DNA of 64,000 bases, taken from the NCBI RefSeq assembly GCF_024400215.1, contig NZ_CP053748.1, positions 6,084,116 through 6,148,115 of the forward strand, in the 5' to 3' direction. Below, piece by piece: positions 48,925 through 59,895 of this stretch (position 1 is its first letter; each line of letters opens with the position of its first letter). The notes beneath the pieces are model-generated. The model ran no database searches, was not told the origin of the DNA, and was given only the letters and a program-made list of their open reading frames with translations. The stretch comes from Massilia sp. erpn (GTDB taxonomy: Bacteria > Pseudomonadota > Gammaproteobacteria > Burkholderiales > Burkholderiaceae_D). The translations under genes were made by a program, and so were the position numbers.

Positions 48925-48975
48925 CAACGTTGGAATTCAAAAAACGTTGACAGGAAAAAAATGATCTCATATAGT
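48925..48975 (+). promoter_or_regulatory. Near-consensus promoter and inverted repeat for the lanthipeptide locus
   Basis: TTGACA (48947-48952), a 17-base spacer and TATAGT (48970-48975) form an almost ideal sigma-70 promoter; transcription would begin near 48982, leaving an untranslated leader of about 185 bases. An inverted repeat, CAACGTT (48925-48931) and AACGTTG (48943-48949), overlaps the -35 and could be an operator. Another, AGTTATT/AATAACT, is at 48790-48811. The 547-base gap between genes (48620-49166) is AT-rich and holds nothing else I can identify. Confidence 0.7.
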
Positions 48976-49166
48976 GATTTTGCTTTTGATAATTACATAA
49001 ACTCATATGCCCTCACAAACGAAATGCTGTTCTTGTTAACCAAAAAGAAACCCGTATTCGCTTGCGATTGCTGATTTCGATGTAATGTTGAAAGTTTTTA
49101 AGCGTAGTGCATTTTTTATAGATCGCGTTATTTGATTAATCTTTTTATTAAATTGGAGGATCAACA

Positions 49167-49259
49167 ATGAACCGCATTTTGAATCTGCAACGCCTGGACC
49201 ACAAAGACCTGGATGGCGAAGTCAAGAGCTGCACCAGCTCTGGCGCTGGCTGCTGCTAA
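49167..49259 (+). CDS. Class III lanthipeptide precursor peptide 1
   Basis: A 30-residue peptide with GGAGGA six bases before the ATG. The leader starts M-N-R-I-L-N-L-Q-R-L-D and contains ILNLQ, the ILxLQ-type motif that class III synthetases recognise. The core at the C terminus is S-C-T-S-S-G-A-G-C-C (residues 21-30) with four Ser/Thr and three Cys residues. Ser21 and Ser24 with Cys29 fit the S-x2-S-x(2-5)-C pattern needed for labionin or lanthionine rings. It is the first gene of the locus. Leader removal site is not defined by a known protease motif. Confidence 0.85.
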   Translation: MNRILNLQRLDHKDLDGEVKSCTSSGAGCC

Positions 49260-49307
49260 TCTGATTTAGTATTACATTCACAATTCATCGTTTATAGGAG
49301 AATTAAA

Positions 49308-56659: not shown

Positions 56660-57925
56660 ATGATACCCGATACCTCTGTCCAAGATACGCCGCTGCCGGA
56701 ATCCAGATCGCGTAAAAAACTCCTGCCCCTGGTGGGCCTACTCGCCCTGGCATTGGCGGCCGGGGTTGTGTTCCAGTTCAAAACTGCCGCCCAGGGCGGC
56801 GCCAGCTATAGCCGCTCGCGCCTTACCATCGCAGCTGCTGAAATCGGCGATTTGACCCGGGATGTCGCGGCCGAAGGCAAGGTGGTCGCCGCCTCAGCCC
56901 CGACCTTGTATTCCGGTTCCGGCGGCACGATCACTTTTAGCGTCCAGCCCGGCAACCCGGTACAAGTAGGCCAGGTCCTGGCACAGATCAGCAGCCCGGA
57001 ATTACTGGCCAGTTTGGCCCAGGCACGGAGTGCGGCCGATGCAATCAAGAGCGATTGGCTACGCGCCGAGGCCGATGCGCGCCAGGCATATGCGAGTGCC
57101 GAGGCGGCAGTGCAGACTGCCGAACTGGGACTGGCCTCTGCAAGCAACGAACTGGCCCGCCAGACGCGCGCCTTCGAAGTCGGTGCTACCGCGGGCTTAA
57201 CCGTCGAACAGTCACGCGACGCCGTCGCCCGCGCGAAAATCACGTATGAGCAGGCAAAAAAGGCCTTGACGCTGAAAAATGACGCCACCCGCTTTGAGCT
57301 GGCTGCGCGCCGCCAGGCCTATGAACGCGCGGCATTACAGGTCAGCGATTTGCAGCGGCAACAGGAGGAACTGTCGGTTCGCTCGCCGGTGGACGGACAA
57401 GTCGGTCAAATTTTTGTTGACGATCGCTCCACGGTTGCCAAAGACGCAAAACTCTTGGCGGTGGTCGACCTGAGCCAACTCGAGGTCCAGGTTCAAGTCG
57501 CCGAAAGCCAGGCCCGGGAGCTGAGCGCCGGCATGCCCGGGGAAATCAGCGGCAGCGGCGGACAATGGCGGGGCCGCGTCAACAGCGTCTCGCCGGAAGT
57601 GGTGAATGGGGAAGTGTCGGCAAGACTGCGTTTTGATGGCACGCCCCCCGCCGCGCTGCGCCAAAATCAACGGCTCTCCGTCCGCGTCTTGCTCGACAAC
57701 CGCAGCAAGGTACTGCGCCTGGCGCGCGGCTCGTTTGTTGAGGAAGGCGGCGGGCGCTGGGCTTATGTCGTGACCGGCGATATGGCCGTCAAGCGGCCTA
57801 TACGCTTGGGCGCGCAAGGCATCTCGCAAGTCGAGGTCCTGGATGGACTGAAATCCGGTGAAGAAGTCGTCATTTCAGGCGGTGAAATATTCAAAGGCGC
57901 TGAACGTGTTCAATTAATCAAGTAG
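56660..57925 (+). CDS. HlyD/MacA-like periplasmic adaptor of the lanthipeptide locus
   Basis: A 421-residue adaptor: one membrane helix at about 20-38, first lipoyl half (V-Q-P-G-N-P-V-Q-V-G-Q-V-L-A-Q-I-S), long alpha-hairpin (about 105-235; rich in Ala and Arg), second lipoyl half (L-S-V-R-S-P-V-D-G-Q-V-G) and beta-barrel domains. It would bridge the inner-membrane permeases to the TolC-like protein encoded two genes on. Confidence 0.88.
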   Translation: MIPDTSVQDTPLPESRSRKKLLPLVGLLALALAAGVVFQFKTAAQGGASYSRSRLTIAAAEIGDLTRDVAAEGKVVAASAPTLYSGSGGTITFSVQPGNPVQVGQVLAQISSPELLASLAQARSAADAIKSDWLRAEADARQAYASAEAAVQTAELGLASASNELARQTRAFEVGATAGLTVEQSRDAVARAKITYEQAKKALTLKNDATRFELAARRQAYERAALQVSDLQRQQEELSVRSPVDGQVGQIFVDDRSTVAKDAKLLAVVDLSQLEVQVQVAESQARELSAGMPGEISGSGGQWRGRVNSVSPEVVNGEVSARLRFDGTPPAALRQNQRLSVRVLLDNRSKVLRLARGSFVEEGGGRWAYVVTGDMAVKRPIRLGAQGISQVEVLDGLKSGEEVVISGGEIFKGAERVQLIK

Positions 57926-57934
57926 GGTGATGCT

Positions 57935-58642
57935 ATGCTTCTGATGCAACATATTGCCAAGGTCTACCGTACCGAAACCGTCGAAACCAACGCGTTGCGT
58001 GACTTCAACCTGACCGTTAAGCAGGGCGAATTCGTCGCGGTCACCGGACCGTCCGGTTCGGGCAAGAGTACCTTCCTGGGTATTGCCGGCTTGGTAGATA
58101 CGCCCACTGGCGGTACCTACCTGCTCGACGGAACCGACGTGAGCCAGATGAACGATGCCGCGCGCAGTCGCTTCCGCAACCGCAAAATCGGCTTTATCTT
58201 TCAGGCCTTCAATTTAATTCCCGACCTTAACCTGATCAATAATATTGAAGTGCCCTTGGCCTACCGCGGCGTCAAAGCCGCCGAGCGCCAGGAACTCGCG
58301 CAGGCGGCCCTCAAACGGGTCGGCCTTGGTTCGCGTGCCAAACATTATCCTGGCCAGCTTTCGGGCGGCCAGCAACAGCGGGTGGCCATCGCCCGCGCCC
58401 TGGCCGGTTCCCCACCGCTGCTCCTGGCCGACGAGCCCACCGGTAATCTCGACAGCGAAATGGCGCGTGGCGTCATGGAACTATTGGAAGAGCTCCATGC
58501 GGACGGTACCACCATCGTGATGGTGACCCACGATCTGCAATTGGCAGAGCGCGCCGAATCGATTGTGCGGGTCAAGGATGGCCAGGCAACCGCGCTTCCC
58601 CGTGGTTCGGGCTTCCTCGTGGCAAATGGAGGCAATACGTGA
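57935..58642 (+). CDS. LolD/MacB-type ABC ATPase of the lanthipeptide locus
   Basis: A 235-residue ATPase: Walker A G-P-S-G-S-G-K-S-T (about 41-49), Q-loop F-I-F-Q-A-F-N, signature L-S-G-G-Q-Q-Q-R, Walker B L-L-L-A-D-E-P-T-G-N-L-D, H-loop V-T-H-D. It powers the two FtsX-type permeases. Its last four bases overlap the GTG start of the TolC-like gene. Confidence 0.92.
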   Translation: MLLMQHIAKVYRTETVETNALRDFNLTVKQGEFVAVTGPSGSGKSTFLGIAGLVDTPTGGTYLLDGTDVSQMNDAARSRFRNRKIGFIFQAFNLIPDLNLINNIEVPLAYRGVKAAERQELAQAALKRVGLGSRAKHYPGQLSGGQQQRVAIARALAGSPPLLLADEPTGNLDSEMARGVMELLEELHADGTTIVMVTHDLQLAERAESIVRVKDGQATALPRGSGFLVANGGNT

Positions 58643-59895
58643 GACACCTGGTCTGGCTCGCCTTGCTTGCTACCTGGAGCCAGGTGGTGGCAGCACCAGC
58701 CGATGACCTGCTCACGCTCTACACGCAAGCCCGCGCCAACAACCCGACACTGCAAAAAGCCACTGCGCAAACCCGTTTGGCCGGCGCGAATGTGGATAGC
58801 GCCCGCGCCCCATTGCTGCCGCAATGGGGCTTGAGTGCCGTGCAACAGCGCTCGGGGGGCGTGGACGCCAACACGGCAAGCAGTAAGATCACGCAATCGG
58901 TGGTCGATCTCGCCGCCCGCTCCAATTGGAAAGCTGCGCGCGCCGAGGCCCATGCGCAAGACGCCAACTTGCTGGCAGCCGAGCAGGTTTTGCTGGCCGA
59001 GGTCGCCGTGCGCTACTTTCAAATGCTCACCGCCGAAAGTCAGCTCCTCACCTATATGGCCAACGAAGCCGCATTCGCCGAGTTGGTACGGCAGAGCGAA
59101 GTGCGCGTGACGGAAGGCCTGTCGGCATCCGCCGACGTCGATCAAGCCCGCGCCTTTCTCGGCCTGGCACAGGGTACGACACAGCAGGCCAAGGAAGCCT
59201 TGGCTGACGCCCGCCAAGCACTCCAGCAACTGGTTGGCCGCGCGCCGGAACAGCTCAAACCCTTAAAAAAAAAATGGCAGCCGGCCATGCTGCCGGCTAG
59301 GCCGGAAGCCGATGCCTTTGCGGACCACCCGCAACTTCAAGCGGGCGACGCAAGTATTACGGCAGCCAAAGAGCGCATCAGTGCAGCGCAGGCCGGTCAT
59401 CTCCCGACCATGGCGCTCGTTCTCACGTCGGAACGTACGCCGCGTGGCAATCTGCCCCAGACCACGTCGACGAATTCGGCCGTGGGCATCCAGCTCACCA
59501 TTCCACTGATCATGGGCGGTGCCATCGTGGCACAAGAAAGGCAAGCCCTGGCAAGGCGAGATGCGGAAATTGCCCAAGTCGAAGTCACCCGGCGCGAAAT
59601 TGCGCGCAACATCAAGGCGCAATGGGAAGCCGCACAGGGAAGCATTGTGCAAATCCGCGCAACAGAAGCCGGCGCCGCTGCGGCCGAGCGTGCGCTGGCG
59701 GCAATACGCTCGGGCCAGCAGATCGGCACACGCAGCCTCACCGATGTGCTCAATGCAATCCAGACCAACGGCCAGGCGCAGTTGCAACTCACCCAGGCTC
59801 GCCATCGCCACGTCGTGGCACTGCTGCTGCTCAAGCAATCCACAGGACGCTTGACGGTCGATGACCTCGCAGCCATCAATACCCTGTTGGAGTAA
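58639..59895 (+). CDS. TolC-like outer-membrane efflux protein of the lanthipeptide locus
   Basis: A 418-residue outer-membrane factor. The GTG start at 58639 overlaps the ATPase stop and has GGAGG six bases upstream. A signal peptide (M-R-H-L-V-W-L-A-L-L-A-T-W-S-Q-V-V-A-A) is followed by the two internal repeats of TolC/NodT proteins (L-Y-T-Q-A-R-A-N-N-P-T-L-Q and later D-V-L-N-A-I-Q-T-N-G-Q-A-Q-L-Q-L). It completes a route from the inner membrane to outside. Convergent murB ends 42 bases downstream, which closes the locus. Confidence 0.9.
   Translation: MRHLVWLALLATWSQVVAAPADDLLTLYTQARANNPTLQKATAQTRLAGANVDSARAPLLPQWGLSAVQQRSGGVDANTASSKITQSVVDLAARSNWKAARAEAHAQDANLLAAEQVLLAEVAVRYFQMLTAESQLLTYMANEAAFAELVRQSEVRVTEGLSASADVDQARAFLGLAQGTTQQAKEALADARQALQQLVGRAPEQLKPLKKKWQPAMLPARPEADAFADHPQLQAGDASITAAKERISAAQAGHLPTMALVLTSERTPRGNLPQTTSTNSAVGIQLTIPLIMGGAIVAQERQALARRDAEIAQVEVTRREIARNIKAQWEAAQGSIVQIRATEAGAAAAERALAAIRSGQQIGTRSLTDVLNAIQTNGQAQLQLTQARHRHVVALLLLKQSTGRLTVDDLAAINTLLE

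What the first reader, a model, noticed from the sequence alone, without database searches (positions are those of the whole stretch)
48925..59895. Complete class III lanthipeptide locus with double-membrane export in a Gram-negative genome
Two small precursor genes, a LanKC synthetase, an ABC exporter and a full adaptor/ATPase/two-permease/TolC-like set are collinear within 11 kb. Class III lanthipeptides were described mainly from Actinobacteria and Firmicutes; a Gram-negative version with a dedicated tripartite exit route is, to my knowledge, little described. LanKC recognition rests on lyase, kinase and zinc-less cyclase motifs seen directly.
Basis: partly seen in the sequence, partly recalled or inferred. 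Interest (0 to 1): 0.92.

Follow-up and report, generated by a model that had tools for sequence, protein, structure and literature searches.

The report
Proteobacterial lanthipeptide island with own exporter
A Gram-negative bacterium carries an inserted set of genes that most likely makes a very small ring-containing peptide (a class III lanthipeptide) and moves it out through both cell membranes; the enzyme type is known, but the paired export system and this peptide family look little studied.

Summary
Two 30-aa precursors (49167-49259, 49308-49400), a three-domain LanKC (49670-52411), an ABC exporter, two MacB-type permeases, an adaptor, an ATPase and a TolC-like protein run collinearly to 59895. 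LanKC scores 625.8 bits on NCBIfam's class III model (cut-off 575) and 431.5 on class IV (cut-off 650), keeps the mapped ThurKC lyase and kinase residues, lacks the zinc ligands and models closest to ThurKC. LanKC-ABC-permease-permease recurs in 8 of 8 loci of its clade that I read, the full set in 5 of 8. Among 392 family genomes, permease-1 relatives at 66% identity or more occur in exactly the five with this LanKC clade. The locus looks like an ~11.25-kb insertion: in 51 of 52 same-genus genomes the flanking genes lie within 2.6 kb. Best reading: class III lanthipeptide island with a two-step exit, inner-membrane exporter then a private MacAB-TolC-like pump. Ring formation and export are inferred. 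'Complete' is too strong: no leader protease was found. Class III loci in Gram-negatives are already in print. New variant of a known kind.

The parts
48685..59937 (.). inserted island (approximate ends) between a DUF998 gene and a murB-like gene
   Evidence: homology to the three closest same-genus genomes stops at 48574-48684 and resumes at 59938-59942; flanking genes within 2.6 kb in 51 of 52 genomes
48947..48975 (+). sigma-70-like promoter candidate TTGACA-17-TATAGT
   Evidence: 11 of 12 consensus matches, number of sites not above chance; similar site upstream of the precursors in L006
49167..49259 (+). lanA1, 30-aa class III precursor
   Evidence: leader RILNLQR, core SCTSSGAGCC; hits to NCBIfam class III precursor models below cut-off; motif conserved in relatives
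49308..49400 (+). lanA2, 30-aa class III precursor
   Evidence: same core as lanA1, two leader differences
49455..49488 (+). hairpin between lanA2 and lanKC, possible attenuator (inferred)
   Evidence: 15-nt inverted repeat, 93% complementary; -19.8 kcal/mol; hairpins of other sequence in the matching stretch of L006 and L016, weaker in L017 and L018
49670..52411 (+). lanKC, class III lanthionine synthetase (lyase, kinase, zinc-less cyclase), 913 aa
   Evidence: NF038151 625.8 bits over cut-off 575; RamC_N, Pkinase, LANC_like; residues; model against ThurKC
52395..53978 (+). ABC exporter (type IV fold, no C39 peptidase, short nucleotide-binding domain), 527 aa
   Evidence: ABC_membrane + ABC_tran; Walker A to signature 72 aa against 104 in four canonical exporters; model like TM287/288, PCAT1, MsbA
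54086..55405 (+). MacB-type permease 1 (matches the N-half of the ADOP model)
   Evidence: MacB_PCD + FtsX; ADOP positions 13-400 of 803; start from homology
55416..56630 (+). MacB-type permease 2 (matches the C-half of the ADOP model)
   Evidence: MacB_PCD + FtsX; ADOP positions 410-801 of 803
56660..57925 (+). periplasmic adaptor (membrane fusion protein)
   Evidence: HlyD_3 / HlyD_D23; RND_mfp 97.9 bits over cut-off 94.9
57935..58642 (+). MacB/LolD-type ATPase
   Evidence: ABC_tran; best NCBIfam DarD 253.6 bits, below its cut-off 375
58639..59895 (+). TolC-family outer-membrane protein
   Evidence: OEP; TIGR01844 229.6 bits over cut-off 225.15

Best explanation
A most likely horizontally acquired class III lanthipeptide island. 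Inferred sequence of events: the LNLQ helix of the leader docks on LanKC; the kinase phosphorylates and the lyase eliminates up to four Ser/Thr of the roughly 10-residue core SCTSSGAGCC; the zinc-free cyclase closes lanthionine or labionin rings on the Cys residues; the short-NBD ABC exporter moves the modified peptide to the periplasm; a protease encoded elsewhere removes the leader at a stage not known; and the private MacAB-like set (two permeases + ATPase + adaptor + TolC-like channel) takes the peptide from the periplasm through the outer membrane. Shown here by sequence: genes, order, domains, catalytic residues, lack of zinc ligands, precursor motif, insertion, and genetic linkage of pump and synthetase. 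Not shown: dehydration, ring pattern, core boundary, export route, leader removal, bioactivity.
For: LanKC over the class III cut-off and under the class IV cut-off. Eight ThurKC lyase residues named in PMC10604976 (passages) plus kinase Lys, Asp, Asn and the D-x-E motif are present in the window protein; over 59 clade rows each is invariant except for one row each at two positions. Zinc ligands C/C/H of two LanL references read E763/I801/F802 here. Model mean pLDDT 87; the five ThurKC chains are the best PDB matches, query-normalised TM 0.68-0.75. All 16 precursors read at 8 loci carry R[IV]LxLQR, SSxxxCC and S-x2-S-x2-5-C (the class III motif quoted in PMC8960859); 15 of 16 carry SxxSSxxxCC. 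Gene order LanA-LanKC-ABC-perm1-perm2 in 8 of 8 loci, with MFP-ATPase-TolC following in 5 of 8. Pump-synthetase linkage: the same five of 392 genomes, the next best permease match at 42% identity. Contig-length coincidence, own genome included: 14 of 120 listed LanKC relatives share a contig length with a listed perm1 relative and 30 of 120 with a listed ABC relative, about 0.4 and 0.5 expected. Insertion. MacAB-TolC takes periplasmic peptides, e.g. STII (PMC8277102, passages).
Against: No biochemical evidence. No protease gene recognised in the locus and no C39 domain on the exporter, so leader removal is unexplained. In 3 of 8 clade loci (the Xanthomonadales-type ones) adaptor and TolC genes were not found beside the cluster, so the private tripartite set is not a fixed part of the family. 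Precursors score below the cut-offs of both NCBIfam precursor models that hit. In the tree LanL falls among divergent LanKC rows and the root is unsettled. Perm1 relatives at 61-65% also occur where no link to a LanKC was seen, and the perm1 tree does not unite all copies that lie beside a LanKC. The exporter's shortened NBD lacks an obvious Q-loop, so its activity is assumed.
Confidence: 0.8

Rival explanations
1. The MacB-type set is a self-protection (immunity) pump: the peptide leaves by another route and the pump expels product that re-enters the periplasm, like LanFEG in Gram-positives.
For: No separate immunity gene was recognised in the locus; MacB-type pumps extrude periplasmic drugs and peptides (PMC8277102, passages); adaptor/ATPase/TolC have higher G+C than LanKC, exporter and permeases in 5 of 5 loci, hinting at a separately added module.
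Against: The permease pair lies directly behind the inner-membrane exporter in 8 of 8 clade loci, and the locus encodes no other outer-membrane exit. Immunity and export are not exclusive for a periplasm-to-outside pump.
Confidence: 0.15
2. The ABC exporter itself docks on the adaptor and TolC-like protein as a one-step type 1 secretion system, and the permease pair serves something else.
For: Two divergent class III loci carry a C39-type ABC with an HlyD-type adaptor: L021 (Pfam) and L078 (by profile similarity to L021 only). A GG leader was seen at L078; no precursor was found at L021 with my motif.
Against: In the window clade the exporter has no C39 domain, leaders have no GG at the core boundary, and the adaptor sits with the MacB-type ATPase, as in the stand-alone pump operons.
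Confidence: 0.08
3. The synthetase makes only dehydrated or linear (lanthionine-free) peptide, because its cyclase has lost the known residues.
For: Besides zinc loss, the ThurKC Asp771 position is Phe802 (LanL-anchored columns) or Gly803 (pairwise alignment), in either case not an acid.
Against: Glu at the first ligand position is invariant and an aromatic occupies the third in 59 of 59 rows, and the paired Cys of the core is kept in 16 of 16 precursors, so cyclisation seems to be under selection.
Confidence: 0.1

Closest known systems
ThurKC and other class III LanKC synthetases (8sam/8sao/8sap; PMC10604976)
   Same: three-domain architecture, eight lyase residues and kinase D-x-E, no zinc ligands, fold
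   Different: 22-23% identity in structural alignment; first-ligand position Glu instead of Ser; second and third positions Ile/Phe instead of Phe/Asp by the LanL-anchored alignment, Phe/Gly by the pairwise one; Gram-negative host
Class III loci annotated in Lysobacter (PMC9410377, PMC10380237) and Luteibacter (PMC11165876)
   Same: class III lanKC in Gram-negative genomes; precursor and lanKC transcribed in L. capsici
   Different: the passages I saw give no gene order, export genes or product
MacAB-TolC and relatives (PvdRT-OpmQ, PseEF; PMC8277102)
   Same: adaptor + MacB_PCD/FtsX permease + ATPase + TolC-family channel; periplasmic substrates for MacAB (passages)
   Different: ATPase and permease are separate genes, and the permease is a pair matching the two halves of the ADOP model
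Darobactin exporter (NCBIfam DarB, DarC, DarD)
   Same: P0006 hits DarD best (253.6 bits); P0005 hits DarC and P0004 hits DarB weakly
   Different: all below the model cut-offs; here an extra inner-membrane peptide exporter precedes the pump
NisT/McjD-type peptide exporters
   Same: type IV ABC exporter fold without peptidase
   Different: Walker A to signature shortened to 72 aa with no recognisable Q-loop

Membership tests
Class III lanthipeptide synthetase (LanKC) | lyase, kinase and LanC-like domains in one protein | tested here: met
   RamC_N, Pkinase and LANC_like, all over the Pfam cut-off; full-length model
Class III lanthipeptide synthetase (LanKC) | curated class III model over cut-off, class IV under | tested here: met
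   NF038151 625.8 against 575; NF038150 431.5 against 650
Class III lanthipeptide synthetase (LanKC) | lyase and kinase catalytic residues | tested here: met
   residue list from passages of PMC10604976, mapped through
Class III lanthipeptide synthetase (LanKC) | cyclase without zinc ligands | tested here: met
   E763/I801/F802 at the C/C/H columns of two LanL references
Class III lanthipeptide synthetase (LanKC) | groups with LanKC and apart from LanL in a tree | tested here: inconclusive
   2 LanL rows on their own 100% branch, but grouped with 5 divergent LanKC rows, root unknown, long branches meet; no class II row was used
Class III lanthipeptide precursor | LxLQ leader and S-x2-S-x2-5-C core | tested here: met
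   16 of 16 precursors at 8 loci
Class III lanthipeptide precursor | NCBIfam precursor models over cut-off | tested here: not met
   19.6 against 22 and 19.5 against 27 at best
Class III lanthipeptide | (Me)Lan or labionin present in the product | not testable with these tools
   needs mass spectrometry or NMR
MacAB-TolC tripartite pump | adaptor, MacB_PCD/FtsX permease, ATPase and TolC-family channel encoded together | tested here: met
MacAB-TolC tripartite pump | MacB as one polypeptide, ATPase fused to permease | tested here: not met
   separate ATPase and two permeases; it may work like MacAB but is not MacB
Darobactin exporter | NCBIfam DarB/DarC/DarD over cut-off | tested here: not met
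   24.4/700, 45.6/450, 253.6/375
C39-type LanT (PCAT) | N-terminal C39 peptidase | tested here: not met
   no C39 hit in P0002

The most novel reading that the evidence does not exclude
A distinct Gram-negative branch of class III lanthipeptide biosynthesis with two new features: (1) a metal-free cyclase in which an invariant Glu (first zinc-ligand position) plus an aromatic replace the Phe/Asp pair of ThurKC; (2) a two-step relay in which a short-NBD ABC exporter hands the peptide to a substrate-specific MacB-like permease pair that is a plug-in part: it travels with the biosynthetic genes and uses either a private adaptor/ATPase/TolC set (as in the window) or a shared one that serves arrays of up to nine permease pairs (Xanthomonadales-type genomes).
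Probability: 0.37. Interest if true: 0.7.

Novelty: new variant of a known kind. Interest (0 to 1): 0.52.

Why it matters
How modified peptides leave a cell with two membranes is, to my knowledge, open for most Gram-negative clusters. This locus puts synthetase, inner-membrane exporter and outer-membrane pump into one inserted 11-kb unit, so the relay can be tested gene by gene in a laboratory host. The clade also offers a possible second natural solution to zinc-free thioether cyclisation and an unusually small precursor (30 aa, with a core of about 10).

Tried and rejected
Third precursor: the 37-aa ORF at 48961-49074 begins within the promoter-like site (48947-48975), has no LxLQ motif and no family hit; rejected.

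Class IV (LanL): rejected on model scores and missing zinc ligands. Class II: the LanM model reaches only 53 bits against a cut-off of 304.

Ordinary stand-alone pump next to a RiPP cluster by accident: rejected, because the permease subfamily occurs in exactly the five sampled family genomes that have this LanKC clade. Results against an exclusive link: relatives of perm1 at 61-65% occur in Luteibacter and Stenotrophomonas; in one such genome (G998, contig length equal to that of P0179) no split perm1/perm2 pair lies beside its divergent LanKC in the ~20 kb read; and in the perm1 tree the copies beside a LanKC need 4 changes, so the pair joined LanKC loci more than once or was reshuffled.

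One architecture for all Gram-negative class III loci: rejected. Of 13 divergent LanKC loci read (4 from the family sample; 9 from the 27 Xanthomonadales-type genomes with only divergent matches), L080 and L083 have a split permease pair beside the cluster; L077 a fused double permease with ATPase and an adaptor-like stretch (29% identity); L021 and L078 a C39-type ABC plus adaptor; L020 an ABC plus M16 peptidase; L075 and L082 a fused permease with ATPase some kb away; L079 an ABC; L076 and L081 an ATPase some kb away, not resolved further; L019 and L022 no transporter recognised in ~20 kb.

Phylum-wide sample: of 398 genomes only our own gave a LanKC at E<=1e-60. Terminal repeats: none of 18 nt or more near both ends of the island.

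Literature: all 10 searches used. In the titles and abstract starts listed I saw no class III lanthipeptide from Massilia or its family and none with a MacB/TolC-type exit; subscription journals are largely not held. The review PMC8341899 could not be read. One search was poorly framed and returned nothing useful. All papers cited were seen as passages only.

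Full report
What is there. The window is the last 64 kb of a one-contig 6.15-Mb genome. From 49167 to 59895 on the + strand lie two 30-aa precursor genes, LanKC (913 aa), an ABC exporter (527 aa), two MacB-type permeases, a periplasmic adaptor, an ATPase and a TolC-family protein. The precursors MNRILNLQRLDHKDLDGEVKSCTSSGAGCC and MNRILNLQRLDHKDIDSEVKSCTSSGAGCC differ at two leader positions. A promoter-like site lies at 48947-48975 (the number of such sites is not above chance) with a counterpart in M. frigida, and a hairpin (-19.8 kcal/mol) between lanA2 and lanKC may attenuate read-through (inferred).

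Identity of the synthetase. NCBIfam class III model 625.8 bits (cut-off 575), class IV 431.5 (cut-off 650). By sequence the best PDB relatives are ThurKC chains. PMC10604976 (passages) names Lys65, His67, Lys94, Lys108, Lys117, Asp152, Arg163 and Arg191 of ThurKC as conserved lyase-domain residues; the equivalents K83, H85, K112, K126, K135, D169, R181 and R213 are all present, as are kinase K273, D383, N388, D402 and E404 (mapped through). In 59 rows of the clade all are invariant except R181 and N388, each different in one row. The two LanL references have C, C, H at the zinc positions; here E763, I801, F802. Over 59 rows the first is always Glu and the third Tyr (45) or Phe (14). ThurKC has Ser726, Phe770, Asp771 there, with Asp771 proposed as base. 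The pairwise alignment instead sets Phe770/Asp771 against F802/G803, one column on, so which residue answers to which is not settled; in neither case is the Asp kept. I infer that the invariant Glu may take over the base role; this is untested. The AlphaFold2 model (50-row alignment, mean pLDDT 87.1, pTM 0.84) matches ThurKC, CuvL, SalKC and PneKC along nearly its whole length.

Tree. In a 72-row quick tree the 59 rows of the window clade form one 100% branch; six LanKCs of Bacillota and Actinomycetota form another; two LanLs sit on a long 100% branch that groups (97%) with four divergent proteobacterial LanKCs and a Deinococcus one. The program warns of long branches meeting, and the root is not known, so 'class III' rests on scores, residues and fold rather than on the tree. 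I used 59 of the 120 listed homologues, the query included; 1324 passed E<=1e-10.

Precursors. I read 16 precursors at 8 loci (window 2, L006 3, L016 1, L017 2, L018 2, L072 1, L073 2, L074 3): R[IV]LxLQR 16 of 16, SSxxxCC 16 of 16, SxxSSxxxCC 15 of 16 (the miss is the second one of L018), S-x2-S-x2-5-C 16 of 16 (that motif is quoted in PMC8960859, passages). The window's precursors score just below the cut-offs of two NCBIfam precursor models. They were found with the LxLQ motif, so its presence is partly by selection; the core motif is not.

Distribution and gene order. Of 392 sampled genomes of the family, 8 have a LanKC at E<=1e-40; 5 of these, our own included, are of the window clade (55-100% identity), and one of them (G295) also has a divergent copy. 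All five carry the order LanA-LanKC-ABC-perm1-perm2-MFP-ATPase-TolC (TolC is cut by the end of the fetched stretch in L017 and L018). G192 is M. frigida by equal contig length (L006). Perm1 at 66% identity or more occurs in exactly those five; the next best of 202 matching genomes is at 42% and none listed is higher (its list is cut at the weak end). Of 348 genomes of another order, 30 have a LanKC at E<=1e-60, 3 of them of the window clade at 52-57%. Those three loci have LanA-LanKC-ABC-perm1-perm2 but no neighbouring adaptor or TolC was found; one has an ATPase. A phylum sample of 398 genomes gave only our own at E<=1e-60. Shared contig lengths, own genome included: 14 of 120 LanKC rows with perm1 rows, all among LanKC ranks 1-39, and 30 of 120 with ABC rows, ranks 1-98, so the exporter seems to accompany LanKC more widely than this permease subfamily; all three lists are capped at 120, so these are lower bounds. 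A Deinococcus plasmid has two precursors, LanKC and ABC without a tripartite set in the stretch read.

Exporters. The ABC protein is a type IV exporter without a C39 domain (model mean pLDDT 84.6). Its nucleotide-binding domain is short: Walker A to signature 72 aa in 112 of the 119 family sequences in which both motifs were found (120 aligned) and in 8 of 8 clade loci, against 104 in four canonical exporters beside divergent LanKCs, 76 in Deinococcus and 79 in L079; no signature was found by my pattern in L083. In the window protein Walker A, signature, Walker B and H-loop are intact; the usual Q-loop stretch reads TLPVLFPP. The two permeases match the two halves of the 803-position ADOP model. 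MacAB-TolC takes substrates from the periplasm, e.g. STII; PvdRT-OpmQ exports pyoverdine and PseEF a lipopeptide (PMC8277102, passages). I therefore propose a two-step relay. In Xanthomonadales-type genomes adaptor and ATPase lie elsewhere, followed by tandem permease pairs: nine in G1050 (a divergent LanKC with its own pair), seven in G844, three in G962, one in G858 (in G1050 the ATPase hits fall in two reading frames and a TolC-like ORF follows). This suggests that permease pairs are interchangeable substrate modules on a shared chassis, and that the window's version carries its own chassis. G+C agrees with a two-part origin: LanKC+ABC+perm1+perm2 is lower than MFP+ATPase+TolC in 5 of 5 loci (e.g. 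0.539 against 0.619 in the window, rest of window 0.641).

Mobility. The GGDEF-response-regulator gene upstream (46957-47994) and the murB-like gene downstream (59938-60966) were sought in 60 same-genus genomes; 60 gave murB and 52 gave the regulator at E<=1e-60. In those 52 they lie on one contig, within 2.6 kb in 51, and 11.9 kb apart only here. Against the three closest genomes homology stops at 48574-48684 and resumes at 59938-59942. Another member of the genus (G363) has its lanthipeptide locus on a different contig from this gene pair. The simplest reading is gain by transfer; loss in all the others is less likely but not excluded. No mobility gene was recognised among the scanned island ORFs and no repeats of 18 nt or more flank it.

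What is missing. No peptidase domain was found among the island's proteins. Most characterised class III loci also lack one, and M16B proteases encoded elsewhere can serve (PMC8960859, passages); this genome has nine M16 domain matches, and a divergent relative (L020) has an M16 gene beside its ABC gene.

Prior work. Class III lanKC loci are reported in Lysobacter enzymogenes/capsici (PMC9410377 and PMC10380237, passages) and Luteibacter (PMC11165876, passages); NCBI names LanKC proteins in Massilia timonae, Xanthomonas, Stenotrophomonas and Janthinobacterium; a review lists class III as experimentally identified in myxobacteria (PMC12328550, passages); Walker et al. found most LanKCs in Actinobacteria and Firmicutes (PMC7268733, passages). 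So 'Gram-negative class III' is not new; the conserved export relay, the cyclase residue pattern and the SxxSSxxxCC family did not appear in the listings I obtained (the ten searches named under Tried and rejected).

Noticed in passing
L087-L088 (G1050:C1:1065144-1092358), L089-L090 (G844:C1:877748-898832), L091 (G962:C1:4149020-4160531): Stretches with one adaptor and an ATPase followed by 9, 7 and 3 tandem pairs of MacB-type permeases: possibly one shared efflux chassis with many substrate modules.
   Followed up: partly
window 52395-53978 and relatives: ABC exporter family with a shortened nucleotide-binding domain (72 aa from Walker A to signature, no clear Q-loop) beside class III LanKC; also short (76 aa) on a Deinococcus plasmid.
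   Followed up: partly
L021, L078: Other proteobacterial class III loci with a C39-type ABC plus HlyD-type adaptor (L078 by profile similarity only); the L078 precursor has a GG leader, i.e. a possible one-step secretion solution.
   Followed up: partly
L020:4440-11678 (G283): Divergent LanKC (32% identity) with ABC exporter and an adjacent M16 peptidase gene, a candidate leader protease; precursor-like ORF containing MSRILNLQGL.
   Followed up: partly
window 49455-49488: Strong hairpin between lanA2 and lanKC; hairpins of unrelated sequence in the matching stretch of L006 and L016.
   Followed up: partly
G000:C1:5845875-5846306 and 5847235-5847639: Adjacent pair of M16 domain matches in the same genome, candidate leader proteases by analogy with the M16B pairs of PMC8960859.
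   Followed up: no
G295:C1 and G295:C12: One genome (contig length equal to Janthinobacterium fluminis) carries two unrelated class III LanKC loci.
   Followed up: no
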